Below are positions 34,509 to 39,689 of a stretch of 64,000 nt of DNA, piece by piece. Every line of letters begins with the position of its first letter. Positions within the stretch are counted from its first letter, which is position 1. Made by a program: the position numbers and the translations under genes. The stretch is taken from contig NZ_BMXI01000001.1 of NCBI RefSeq assembly GCF_014651675.1, positions 375,968 through 439,967 of the forward strand, read 5' to 3'. Origin of the DNA: Roseibacillus persicicus (GTDB taxonomy: Bacteria > Verrucomicrobiota > Verrucomicrobiia > Verrucomicrobiales > Akkermansiaceae). The notes beneath the pieces are model-generated. The model ran no database searches. It saw only the letters and a list, made by a program, of their open reading frames with translations, and was not told the origin of the DNA.

Positions 34509-35600
34509 ATGTCCGAAAACACCACCACCTATACCGTCGGAAACCGCACTTTTGTTCTCGATAAAGAGAAAGCTGACGCAGCCATCGCCGCCAAAGCCGT
34601 CATCAACGGACGCGACACCATGTTCTTCAACATTCTCCCCCTGAAATACCAGTGGGCGTATGACCTCTACAAGACGATGAAGAACAACCACTGGGAGCCC
34701 GAGGACATCCAGATGCAGACCGACATCCAGCAGTGGCAGGGCAACGACATTTCCGACGTGGAGCGCTGGATCATCAAGATGGGCATCGGCTACTTCTCCG
34801 CCGCCGAAGGCATCGTGGGGGACAACATTCTCCACGTGGTGCGCGAGCTCGTCACCGCCCCCGAGCTCAAGCTCGTCCTCGGCCGTCACGCCCACGAGGA
34901 AAACATCCACGCCGACAGCCTCGTCTACATGATTTCCTCCCTCGGCATCAACCCGCACGAATGCGAGGCCATGTTCGAGGACATCCCCACCATCAAGGCC
35001 AAGAACAACTTCGTGGTCTCCAACTCCCGCGCCCTCCGTCGCGACGTGGACCTCACCGTCCTCGAGAACAAGCAGGCTCTCGCCAAAAACATCTTCATGT
35101 TCGGCCAGGTCATGGAAGGCACCCAGTTCTACGGTCTCTTTGGCATGATCCTCAGCCTCTATCGCCAGAACAAGTTCCCCGGCATCGGGCAAATGTTCCG
35201 CTACACCCTGCGCGACGAGTCCAACCACATCGAGGTCTTCCGCAACCTGCTCAACACCCTCATCACCGAGAACCCCGACATCTGGACCAAGGAGTTCCAA
35301 CAGGACCTCCGCGACACCATGGCCGAAGGCGTCCGCCTCGAGAAAGAGTTCATCCGCGACTGCCTCCCCGTCAGCGCCGTCGGTCTCAGCTGCGAGGAGT
35401 TCGAGCAATACATCGACTACATCTCCGACCGTCGCCTCGTCAACTGCCGCCTCGAGCCCCTCATCGGCGGCGTCGAAAACCCCTTCCCCTGGCTCTCCGA
35501 GTCCATGGACCTCAAGAAGGAGCAGAACTTCTTCGAAGGCAAAGTCACCGAATACCAGAAGGCCAGCGCCCTCGCCGGTGCCGACGACGACGAGCTCTAG
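34509..35600 (+). CDS. nrdB: Ribonucleotide reductase beta subunit, subclass Ic-like
   Basis: 363 aa. The small subunit generates the oxidant that starts dNTP synthesis. Metal ligands are visible: E100 (FSAAEGIVGDN), E131 and H134 (HEENIH), the Glu in 'QVMEGTQFYG', and Glu/His in 'RDESNHIE'. At the position of the radical Tyr of class Ia (four residues after H134) there is L138, with Y140 two residues on. The first ligand is Glu, not Asp. This is the Chlamydia-type pattern (Glu89, Phe127, Tyr129 there), in which a Mn/Fe cluster replaces the tyrosyl radical. The C-terminal tail for binding NrdA ends in DDDEL. It precedes a small membrane gene and nrdA on the same strand. Confidence 0.93.
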   Translation: MSENTTTYTVGNRTFVLDKEKADAAIAAKAVINGRDTMFFNILPLKYQWAYDLYKTMKNNHWEPEDIQMQTDIQQWQGNDISDVERWIIKMGIGYFSAAEGIVGDNILHVVRELVTAPELKLVLGRHAHEENIHADSLVYMISSLGINPHECEAMFEDIPTIKAKNNFVVSNSRALRRDVDLTVLENKQALAKNIFMFGQVMEGTQFYGLFGMILSLYRQNKFPGIGQMFRYTLRDESNHIEVFRNLLNTLITENPDIWTKEFQQDLRDTMAEGVRLEKEFIRDCLPVSAVGLSCEEFEQYIDYISDRRLVNCRLEPLIGGVENPFPWLSESMDLKKEQNFFEGKVTEYQKASALAGADDDEL

Positions 35601-36437: not shown

Positions 36438-39400
36438 ATGTATCGCTCAATCACCCTCGAAGAAGACATCGCCCTCAAAGAAGTGATCTCCAATCGCTTC
36501 CAAAACACCAACCCGGACTTCCGTGCCCACAGTTGGCGCGAGACCCTCCAGTCTTCCGAGCGAAACCCCATCCCGGAAATCACCGTCACCAACGGTTCCA
36601 CCGAGGAACACTTCTCCCTCGCTAACGTCGCCGACGCCATTGGCGAATCCCTCACCGACCTCCTCATCGCCCGCAAGCAGGACCACGACAGCATCTTCAA
36701 CGAGGAAAACCGCTCCTTTGTCTCCGCCGTCGCCTACAGCGTCTCCAAGCGCCTCATGGAGCAGGTGCAAAAGGGCAACTCCCTCAAGCTCACCCAGAAC
36801 GACCTTTACCTCCTCATCGAAAAGGCCCTCATCGAGAACGACGCCCATGACGTCGCCAAGTCCCTCGTCTTCAAGCGTCGACTTGAAAGCAGCGGCGAGA
36901 TCTCCCTCGATGAGGAGCCCGCCACCATGCCCGTGCGCCTCATCCGCCGCAACGGCAACGTCGTCCCCTGGTCGGAGACCAAGATCGAGTCCGCCGTTCG
37001 CAACGCCTTTCTTTCCAGCAAAGAAGACCCCACCCCCGCCGCCGCCATCTGTCACGCCGTGACCCAGATCGCCCGCCAGGGAGACCAGGCCTTCGTCCAC
37101 ATCGAGGATGTCCAGGACATGGTGCAGAACGAACTCATGCGCCAGGGATTCTTCAAGGTCGCCGAGAGCTACATCCTCTACCGCGCCGAGCGCTCCCGCA
37201 TGCGCGAGCTCCAGACCGGCCCTGCCGAGGACCCCAATCAGGAATCCTTCGTCACCGTCGTGCGCGATGGCGCCTCCGAGTTCTGGGACGGACAAGAGCT
37301 CAAGAAGCGCATCCAGTTTGCCTCCATCGGCTTGAACCTCGACATGACCGACGACGTGCTCGAGCGCGAACTCCGCCGCTCTATCGGAGCCGAGATCTCC
37401 GCCGAGGACCTTCAGAAAACCATCTGCCTCAACGCCCGCGCCCTCATCGAGAAAGACGCCGACATGGCCAAGTTCGCCGGCCGCATCCTCCTTTCCTACA
37501 TCTACGAGGAAGTCCTCGACTGGAACATCGTGCGAGACGGCATCGAGCGCCTCAAGGAAGCGCACAAAAAGGCCTTCCGCGCCTACCTCAAGCACGGGGT
37601 CAAGATCAAGCGCCTCAGCCCCGACCTCCTCGACGGTCGCTACGACATCCCGAAACTCGCCGAAGCCCTCGACCCCTCCGCCGACCTCGACTTCGACTAC
37701 CTCGGCATCCAGACCCTCTACGATCGCTACCTCATCGTCGACAAGACCGGTGCCAAGCCCCGCCGTATGGAGACCCCCCAGTTCTTCTGGATGCGCGTCT
37801 CGATGGGACTTTTCAAGGCCGAGAAGAACCGCCGCAACAACTGGGCCACCCGCCTTTACAATCTCTACAAAGGACGCCGCTTCTGCAGCAGCACCCCCAC
37901 CCTCTTCAACTCCGGCACCCTCCACAGCCAGCTCTCCAGCTGTTACCTCTACAAGGTCGACGATAGCATCGAGTCCATCATGCAGCGCGGCATCGCCGAC
38001 AACGCCTACCTCAGCAAGTGGGCAGGCGGACTCGGGGGCTCCTGGACCGCTGTGCGCGGCACCGGTGGCTACATCCAGGGCACCAACGGCGAGTCCCAGG
38101 GCGTCATTCCTTTCCTCAAGCTCCACAACGACCAGCTCATCGCCGTCAACCAGGGCGGCAAGCGCCGGGGCTCCGGTTGCGCCTACCTTGAGACCTGGCA
38201 CAACGACATCGAGGACTTCCTCCAGCTTCGCGTCAATACCGGTGACGAACGTCGCCGCACCCACGACATGAACACCGCGAACTGGATTCCCGACCTTTTC
38301 ATGCAACGCATGGAGGCCCGCCAGAACTGGACCCTCTTCCGCGCCAACGAGACCCCAGACCTGCACGACCTCTACGGCAAGGCCTTCCAACTCCGCTACG
38401 AGGAATACGAGAAACAAGCCGAAGAAGGCAAAATCTGGTCCCGCCAAATCCCCGCCATCGACCTCTGGAAGAAAATGCTCTCCATGGTCTTCGAGACCGG
38501 ACACCCCTGGATCACTTTCAAGGATCCCTGCAACGTGCGCAGCCCGCAGGACCACGTCGGCGTCATCCACAGCAGTAACCTCTGCACCGAGATCACGCTG
38601 AATACCTCCGAGGAAGAAACCGCCGTCTGCAACCTCGGTTCCGTCGTCCTCGACACCCACATCACCGAGGACGGAGCGCTCGACCACGACATGCTGCGCG
38701 AGACCATCCTCGTCGCCATCCGGGCCCTCGACAACGTCATCGACATCAACTTCTACCCCACCGACGCCGCCGCTACCGCCAACAGCCGTCACCGTCCCAT
38801 CGGACTCGGCGTCATGGGTCTCCAGAATGCCCTTTACAAGAAAGGCTACTCCTTTGCCAGCGAGCAGGCCGTCGACTTCAATGACGAGTTCATGGAAGCC
38901 ATCTCCTACTATGCCTATAGTAGCTCCAGCGACCTCGCCGGCGAGCGCGGAACCTACCAGAGCTACAAGGGCTCCAAGTGGGACCGCGGCCTCCTTCCCC
39001 AGGACACCCTCGACCTCCTGCAGGAAGAGCGCGGCCAGGACATCGAAGTCCCCCGCGGCGGCAAAATGGACTGGCGTCCCGTGCGCGAAAAGATTGCCCA
39101 GAACGGCATGCGCAACTCCAACGTCCTCGCCATCGCCCCTACTGCGACCATCTCCAACATCATGGGCACCACCCCCTGCATCGAGCCCAGCTACAAGAAC
39201 CTCTTCGTCAAGAGCAACCTCAGCGGCGACTTCATCGTTCTCAACCGCGAGCTCGTCAACGACCTCAAAAAAGAAGGCCTCTGGAACCAAGAAATGCTCG
39301 ACCAGCTCAAATACTTCGACGGCGAGCTCTCCGACATCGACGGCATCCCTGAGCAACTCAAGAAGAAACACCTCACCGTCTTCAGCATCGGCCACGACTA

Positions 39401-39689
39401 CCTCATCGACGCCGCCGCCCGCCGCCAGAAGTGGATTGACCAGTCCCAGAGCGTCAACCTCTTCCTCGCCACCCCCGAGATGAAGACCCTCAGCCACATG
39501 TATCGTCGCGCCTGGTCCACTGGCCTCAAAACCACCTACTACCTCCGCACCTTGCAGGCTTCCAACATCGAAAAGAGCACCGTAGGAGCCAACACCAGCG
39601 GCAACGCCAAAACCTACACCCCCGCCGAAAAAGCTGCCTGCTCAATCGAAGCCATGCGCAACGGCGAAGAGTGCGAGGCTTGTCAATAA
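36438..39689 (+). CDS. nrdA: Ribonucleotide reductase alpha subunit with three ATP-cones
   Basis: 1083 aa, longer than E. coli NrdA (761). Residues ~45-150, ~163-258 and ~268-365 each look like an ATP-cone, so overall activity control by ATP/dATP is probably elaborate. The catalytic barrel shows the redox cysteine in 'LSSCYLYKV', the N714-L-C716-T-E718 active-site triad, C731 in 'AVCNLGS' and the radical-transfer pair Y1034-Y1035 in 'GLKTTYYLR'. A CEAC pair (C1079/C1082) at the end can shuttle electrons. Works with NrdB 0.8 kb upstream. Immediately downstream is a hairpin repeat and a degraded second nrdA 3' end. Confidence 0.95.
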   Translation: MYRSITLEEDIALKEVISNRFQNTNPDFRAHSWRETLQSSERNPIPEITVTNGSTEEHFSLANVADAIGESLTDLLIARKQDHDSIFNEENRSFVSAVAYSVSKRLMEQVQKGNSLKLTQNDLYLLIEKALIENDAHDVAKSLVFKRRLESSGEISLDEEPATMPVRLIRRNGNVVPWSETKIESAVRNAFLSSKEDPTPAAAICHAVTQIARQGDQAFVHIEDVQDMVQNELMRQGFFKVAESYILYRAERSRMRELQTGPAEDPNQESFVTVVRDGASEFWDGQELKKRIQFASIGLNLDMTDDVLERELRRSIGAEISAEDLQKTICLNARALIEKDADMAKFAGRILLSYIYEEVLDWNIVRDGIERLKEAHKKAFRAYLKHGVKIKRLSPDLLDGRYDIPKLAEALDPSADLDFDYLGIQTLYDRYLIVDKTGAKPRRMETPQFFWMRVSMGLFKAEKNRRNNWATRLYNLYKGRRFCSSTPTLFNSGTLHSQLSSCYLYKVDDSIESIMQRGIADNAYLSKWAGGLGGSWTAVRGTGGYIQGTNGESQGVIPFLKLHNDQLIAVNQGGKRRGSGCAYLETWHNDIEDFLQLRVNTGDERRRTHDMNTANWIPDLFMQRMEARQNWTLFRANETPDLHDLYGKAFQLRYEEYEKQAEEGKIWSRQIPAIDLWKKMLSMVFETGHPWITFKDPCNVRSPQDHVGVIHSSNLCTEITLNTSEEETAVCNLGSVVLDTHITEDGALDHDMLRETILVAIRALDNVIDINFYPTDAAATANSRHRPIGLGVMGLQNALYKKGYSFASEQAVDFNDEFMEAISYYAYSSSSDLAGERGTYQSYKGSKWDRGLLPQDTLDLLQEERGQDIEVPRGGKMDWRPVREKIAQNGMRNSNVLAIAPTATISNIMGTTPCIEPSYKNLFVKSNLSGDFIVLNRELVNDLKKEGLWNQEMLDQLKYFDGELSDIDGIPEQLKKKHLTVFSIGHDYLIDAAARRQKWIDQSQSVNLFLATPEMKTLSHMYRRAWSTGLKTTYYLRTLQASNIEKSTVGANTSGNAKTYTPAEKAACSIEAMRNGEECEACQ

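What the first reader, a model, noticed from the sequence alone, without database searches (positions are those of the whole stretch)
34509..35600. NrdB has Leu in place of the radical tyrosine (subclass Ic, Mn/Fe type)
Alignment of the E..H motif places L138 at the position of Tyr122 in E. coli and Phe127 in Chlamydia trachomatis, with Y140 kept two residues later and Glu (E100) as first ligand. These features define the R2c group that uses a Mn(IV)/Fe(III) cofactor and no Tyr radical. Leu in this place is rarer than Phe. The window also has iron uptake and a possible Fe/Co/Zn exporter.
Basis: partly seen in the sequence, partly recalled or inferred. Interest (0 to 1): 0.68.

Follow-up and report, generated by a model that had tools for sequence, protein, structure and literature searches.

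The report
Tyrosine-less ribonucleotide reductase with leucine
The bacterium's only DNA-building-block enzyme of this type lacks the usual radical-carrying tyrosine and has leucine there instead; this is a fixed trait of a whole lineage of Verrucomicrobiota and so probably a metal-powered enzyme related to, but not the closest kin of, the known Chlamydia one.

Summary
NrdB (34509-35600) aligns L138 with Phe127 of C. trachomatis R2 and Tyr122 of E. coli, E100 with their first ligand (Glu89/Asp84), and all other ligands and radical-transfer residues are kept. It is the genome's only class I RNR beta subunit; I found no class II or III enzyme and no NrdI. Leu is not an oddity: all 151 distinct relatives of the clade examined have it, across much of Verrucomicrobiota plus scattered Armatimonadota, Rhodothermota and Actinomycetota. 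Leu in R2c is already documented (Hogbom 2010, cited in PMC3824934). What I add is that the Leu clade is separate from the Chlamydia-type Phe clade: Phe-type proteins are 57% identical to Tyr/Asp neighbours but only 39% to Leu-type ones, although one Tyr-less clade is not rejected (AU p=0.14). Every Leu-type protein also has Thr at position 233, the class Id Thr position, where all Phe-type and class Ia proteins sampled have Ile. A metal-centred oxidant is likely; Mn/Fe is plausible but not testable here. In seven relatives, not in this genome, a tandem NrdB paralogue that has lost its metal site precedes nrdB-nrdA under purifying selection: a possible bacterial counterpart of yeast Rnr4.

The parts
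34509..35600 (+). nrdB, class I ribonucleotide reductase beta subunit, Leu-type (363 aa)
34920..34922 (+). codon of L138, in the place of the radical tyrosine (E. coli Y122, C. trachomatis F127)
34806..34808 (+). codon of E100, first metal ligand (Ct E89, E. coli D84)
34899..34910 (+). E131..H134, metal ligands (Ct E120, H123)
35115..35117 (+). E203, metal ligand (Ct E193)
35205..35207 (+). T233, position of class Id Thr191 (F. johnsoniae) / Thr294 (L. blandensis); Ile in class Ia and Phe-type Ic
35217..35228 (+). E237..H240, metal ligands (Ct E227, H230)
34692..34694 (+). W62, radical-transfer Trp (Ct W51, E. coli W48)
35553..35555 (+). Y349, C-terminal radical-transfer Tyr (Ct Y338, E. coli Y356)
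36438..39689 (+). nrdA, class I alpha subunit with ATP-cone (1083 aa); N714-C716-E718, Y1034-Y1035 and C-terminal C1079/C1082 intact

Best explanation
NrdB is the working beta subunit of the genome's only ribonucleotide reductase. O2 (or peroxide/superoxide) reacts with a dinuclear metal site held by E100, E131, H134, E203, E237 and H240 to give a high-valent metal centre, most likely Mn(IV)/Fe(III) as in C. trachomatis. That centre, not a tyrosyl radical, stores the oxidising equivalent, since L138 cannot be oxidised. On substrate binding the hole passes via W62 and Y349 to Y1034/Y1035 and C716 of NrdA. Shown: the residues, their alignment, their conservation, and the absence of another RNR. 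Inferred: metal identity, oxidation states, activation route. The protein belongs to a Leu/Glu/Thr lineage distinct from the Chlamydia Phe/Glu/Ile lineage.
For: Residue alignment to Ct R2c and E. coli; W62, Y232 and Y349 kept in 151/151 Leu-type sequences and the metal ligands in all of them tabulated; NrdA radical-transfer and catalytic residues intact; sole RNR: one PF00268, one PF02867, no PF13597, no NrdI in a 97% complete genome, so it must work; AlphaFold2 model (pLDDT 84.5) best matches C. trachomatis NrdB, Z 43, 2.3 A; an Nramp-type (Mn/Fe) transporter family member is encoded elsewhere (weak support).
Against: No metal, EPR or activity data exist for any Leu-type protein that I could find. 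It is not in the Phe-type clade and shares Thr233 with the Mn2-type class Id, so the cofactor could differ from Chlamydia's.
Confidence: 0.65

Rival explanations
1. Metal-centred oxidant, but dimanganese (Mn(IV)/Mn(III)) as in class Id rather than Mn/Fe.
For: Glu first ligand and Thr233 at the class Id Thr position in all 151 Leu-type sequences; class Id also stores the oxidant on metal.
Against: The class Id Lys71 (first ligand +4), proposed to attract superoxide, is Gly104 here; the essential Tyr104 of class Id is Leu; far closer in sequence and fold to Ct R2c than to class Id.
Confidence: 0.15
2. Di-iron class Ia-like enzyme with a stable radical on a different tyrosine (Y140, Y208 or the lineage-specific Y95).
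For: Y95 is Tyr in 151/151 Leu-type and Phe in 30/30 Phe-type and 12/12 neighbouring Tyr-type sequences.
Against: Y140, Y208 and Y232 are equally present in Phe-type R2c and class Ia neighbours; Y140 is His in a 5-member sister group; Y95 lies five residues before the first ligand, where E. coli also has a Tyr (Y79) not known as a radical site (own knowledge).
Confidence: 0.1
3. Fe/Fe metal-centred oxidant (Fe(III)/Fe(IV)) without Mn.
For: Early proposal for Chlamydia R2 (own knowledge); sequence alone cannot separate Mn/Fe from Fe/Fe.
Against: In C. trachomatis Mn/Fe proved to be the active form (PMC8463856).
Confidence: 0.07
4. Artefact or inactive gene (sequencing error, pseudogene).
For: None found.
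Against: Same motif in all close relatives, open frame, sole RNR.
Confidence: 0.01

Closest known systems
Class Ic RNR beta (R2c), Chlamydia trachomatis NrdB (Mn(IV)/Fe(III), Phe127)
   Same: Glu first ligand, redox-inert residue in place of Tyr, all ligands and radical-transfer residues; closest solved fold
   Different: about 35-40% identical; Leu instead of Phe; Thr233 instead of Ile223; Leu210 instead of Gly200; separate clade
R2c proteins with Leu, Ile or Val (Hogbom 2010, cited in PMC3824934)
   Same: the same substitution class, already on record
   Different: I could not read the original list, so whether Verrucomicrobiota proteins were in it is unknown; Thr233 and the separate clade are not mentioned in the papers I could search
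Class Id RNR beta (F. johnsoniae, L. blandensis; Mn2(IV,III))
   Same: Glu first ligand, metal-stored oxidant, Thr at position 233
   Different: keeps Tyr, has Lys71; only about 14-19% identical over the structural alignments
Class Ia RNR beta (E. coli, and the phage/gammaproteobacterial Tyr/Asp group)
   Same: fold and other ligands
   Different: Tyr radical and Asp first ligand
Class O ferritin-like radical subunits (PMC9531940)
   Same: Phe or Leu at the radical site
   Different: minimal proteins of a different RNR class; not compared here

Membership tests
Class Ic RNR beta (R2c) | Glu as first metal ligand | tested here: met
   E100 = Ct E89
Class Ic RNR beta (R2c) | radical Tyr replaced by a redox-inert residue | tested here: met
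   L138 = Ct F127
Class Ic RNR beta (R2c) | monophyly with Chlamydia-type R2c | tested here: inconclusive
   best trees separate them, AU test p=0.14 does not reject one clade
Class Ic RNR beta (R2c) | Mn(IV)/Fe(III) cofactor and no Tyr radical | not testable with these tools
   needs metal analysis, EPR, Moessbauer
Class Ic RNR beta (R2c) | C-terminal radical-transfer Tyr and partner NrdA | tested here: met
   Y349; nrdA 36438-39689
Class Id RNR beta | Tyr at the radical position with Glu first ligand | tested here: not met
   Leu138
Class Id RNR beta | Thr191/Thr294 | tested here: met
   T233 in 151/151
Class Id RNR beta | Lys71 at first ligand +4 | tested here: not met
   G104
Class Ia RNR beta | Tyr radical site with Asp first ligand | tested here: not met
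   L138, E100
Class Ib RNR beta (NrdF) | NrdI partner and Tyr/Asp pair | tested here: not met
   no PF07972 in the genome; L138/E100; below the NrdF cut-off
R2lox | no C-terminal radical-transfer Tyr, no nrdA partner | tested here: not met
   Y349 and nrdA present; R2lox models far below cut-off
Class Ie (R2e) | three ligand Glu replaced (QSK/VPK), Tyr kept | tested here: not met
   all ligands kept, Tyr absent

The most novel reading that the evidence does not exclude
The Leu/Glu/Thr proteins are a metal-oxidant RNR lineage that lost the tyrosyl radical independently of the Chlamydia type, with a differently built pocket (Leu138/Thr233/Leu210) and possibly a different metal preference; in some Akkermansiaceae it works with a dedicated metal-free partner subunit (beta-prime), a bacterial counterpart of yeast Rnr4.
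Probability: 0.3. Interest if true: 0.68.

Novelty: new variant of a known kind. Interest (0 to 1): 0.43.

Why it matters
In the papers I could search, only Phe-type enzymes (chiefly C. trachomatis) are biochemically characterised members of class Ic. A lineage that supplies the sole RNR of a free-living bacterium, lacks the tyrosine, and differs at residues that line the radical pocket would test whether Mn/Fe chemistry follows from Glu plus a non-tyrosine residue or from the wider scaffold, and how often the tyrosyl radical was lost. The beta-prime operons would show whether inactive partner subunits arose outside eukaryotes.

Tried and rejected
NrdR box search in the window with ACACWATATATWGTGT, up to 3 mismatches: none. 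Hogbom 2010 is not held, so I rely on its citation. Papers naming Verrucomicrobia with class Ic: only one, on Chlamydiae evolution. Papers on bacterial Rnr4-like paralogues: none found. Viral contigs gave Val/Glu (Thr233) and Tyr/Asp proteins but no Leu-type. The possibility that Leu is a one-genome oddity was rejected. A clean claim of independent Tyr loss was rejected as unproven (AU p=0.14). I predicted a structure for beta-prime (pLDDT 87) but did not search it against solved structures.

Full report
WHAT IS THERE. The ORF at 34509-35600 (+) encodes a 363-residue NrdB, followed by nrdA at 36438-39689. The alignment with C. trachomatis R2 places E100, E131, H134, E203, E237 and H240 on the six ligands, L138 on Phe127, Y140 on Tyr129, W62 on Trp51, Y232 on Tyr222 and Y349 on Tyr338. 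With E. coli NrdB in the alignment, L138 falls on Tyr122 and E100 on Asp84. NrdA keeps the N-C-E active-site triad (N714, C716, E718), the YY pair (Y1034-Y1035) and a C-terminal CxxC.

IS IT REAL AND USED. The genome (97% complete) has one PF00268 protein, one PF02867 protein, no anaerobic NrdD and no NrdI. The single PF02867 match is this NrdA, so no class II enzyme was seen either. This RNR must therefore supply the cell's deoxyribonucleotides, with the caveat of 3% missing sequence. All intact close homologues fetched within the order have Leu. In 387 genomes sampled from the phylum, 126 match; about 84 of these are at least 67% identical to the window protein (counted by hand), and every one I fetched has Leu. 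A scan of named genomes adds Haloferula, Prosthecobacter, Opitutaceae and Pelagicoccus, and outside the phylum Roseithermus (Rhodothermota), Solirubrobacter (Actinomycetota) and Fimbriimonadaceae (Armatimonadota); these last suggest horizontal transfer, which was not tested further. In total 151 distinct Leu-type sequences were aligned, five of them a 51-57% identical sister group with His for Y140. Many are near copies, so these counts are not independent events.

WHERE IT BELONGS. Residue by residue it meets the class Ic definition. The structure model (pLDDT 84.5) is closest to C. trachomatis NrdB (Z 43, rmsd 2.3 A over 325 residues), then 6y2n, then Aquifex and E. coli R2. But trees built without the two defining columns put the Leu clade (98/98 support) apart from the Phe clade, with Tyr/Asp class Ia sequences among or next to the Phe sequences (a first quick tree with all columns, agrees). 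Mean identity says the same: Phe-type to neighbouring Tyr/Asp-type 57%, Phe-type to Leu-type 39%, Leu-type to those Tyr/Asp sequences 36%. Holding all Tyr-less sequences in one clade costs 8.3 log-likelihood units and is not rejected (p-AU 0.14). So several losses of Tyr are favoured by the best tree but not shown; part of the 17-row Tyr group is distant, and the polarity is unrooted.

A POCKET DIFFERENCE. Among the positions fixed differently in Leu- and Phe-type proteins, 138 (Leu/Phe), 210 (Leu or Met/Gly) and 233 (Thr/Ile) bear on the radical site. Position 233 is Thr in all 151 Leu-type sequences, in 3 phage Val/Glu proteins and in the class Id protein of a relative, but Ile in all 30 Phe-type and all Tyr/Asp sequences sampled, E. 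coli included. The alignment to L. blandensis NrdB (5olk) shows that this is its Thr294 (numbering fixed by its Tyr207), the residue that hydrogen-bonds the sequestered Tyr (PMC5794259), and so by alignment Thr191 of F. johnsoniae (PMC8463856; a T191I variant exists as PDB 8dq5). The class Id Lys71 is not there (Gly104). That 210 and 233 face the pocket is inferred from the E. coli equivalents S211 and I234 (own knowledge); I had no coordinates to measure.

MECHANISM. Most likely a high-valent metal centre is the stored oxidant and the hole leaves through W62/Y349 to NrdA. Mn/Fe is the best guess from the Chlamydia precedent (PMC8463856) but is inferred, and Thr233 keeps Mn2 open. A substitute radical tyrosine is unlikely: the conserved tyrosines near the site are shared with Phe-type and class Ia proteins, except Y95, which sits where E. 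coli has Y79.

WHAT IS KNOWN. Leu, Ile and Val in R2c were reported by Hogbom (2010), as cited in PMC3824934; earlier work already found R2c possibly polyphyletic (PMC3824934, discussing Lundin 2010, PMC3019208). The Leu itself is therefore not new. I found no paper on the Thr233 pairing, on the Leu clade as a unit, or on its biochemistry, within an open-access library only.

A PARTNER SUBUNIT IN RELATIVES. Seven genomes of the window's family (all five sampled from one genus, Persicirhabdus sediminis, and one genome of a third genus) have the order beta-prime, nrdB, nrdA. Beta-prime is 44-48% identical to the window NrdB but has lost E100 (Gln or Gly), H134 (Arg or Gln), E237 (Ile, Val or Ala), H240 (Arg) and the C-terminal Tyr with its KKEQNFF motif, while keeping the acidic C-terminal tail (DDDDL) that probably docks on NrdA. 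It evolves under constraint: for G532/G541 dN 0.093, dS 1.44; for G014/G532 dN 0.126, dS 1.74, though dS is near saturation. Its partner beta keeps every ligand. This looks like yeast Rnr4, which lacks metal-site residues and may act as a chaperone (PMC3824934), but it arose inside the Leu clade. It is unlike class Ie, which keeps its Tyr (PMC11846895). Two genomes of another family carry a different tandem copy that keeps the ligands but has lost Y140 and Y232. The window's genome has no beta-prime. Its role is a proposal only.

VERDICT. Observation confirmed; interpretation partly supported. A documented substitution, but in a distinct and widespread lineage with a class Id-like Thr that I did not find described and, in some members, an unusual partner gene.

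Noticed in passing
L033:4784-5842 (-), L034:4955-6016 (+), L178:4864-5922, and L243-L247 (genomes G014, G016 = Persicirhabdus sediminis KCTC 22039, G532, G535, G541, G573, G584): Tandem NrdB paralogue upstream of nrdB-nrdA with the metal ligands and the C-terminal Tyr lost but the acidic tail kept, under purifying selection: a candidate bacterial beta-prime subunit.
   Followed up: partly
L063:5456-6529, L064:5981-4896 (genomes G151, G238): A different tandem NrdB copy downstream of the normal one: ligands intact, but Y140 to His and Y232 to Asn.
   Followed up: partly
L065, L183, L184, L185, L186: Sister group of the Leu-type (51-57% identical) with His in place of Y140 (the Ct Tyr129 position).
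   Followed up: partly
L214:5001-5930, L215:5001-5933, L217: Viral contigs encoding an R2 with Val in place of the radical Tyr, Glu first ligand and Thr at position 233.
   Followed up: partly
window:39844-42366 (+): 840-aa P-loop ATPase with a weak HsdR_N-like N terminus directly after nrdA; weak defence-like matches only.
   Followed up: no
window:35661-36041 (+): Small ORF (126 aa) between nrdB and nrdA, with a signal-peptide-like stretch and one membrane helix from about residue 44; no Pfam match.
   Followed up: no
window:26009-28510 (+): Fused cbb3 oxidase subunits I and II (CcoN-CcoO) in one 833-aa ORF.
   Followed up: no
genome G369 (L066, L067, L068): One genome encodes a Leu-type NrdB plus two distant Tyr/Asp-type R2 proteins.
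   Followed up: no
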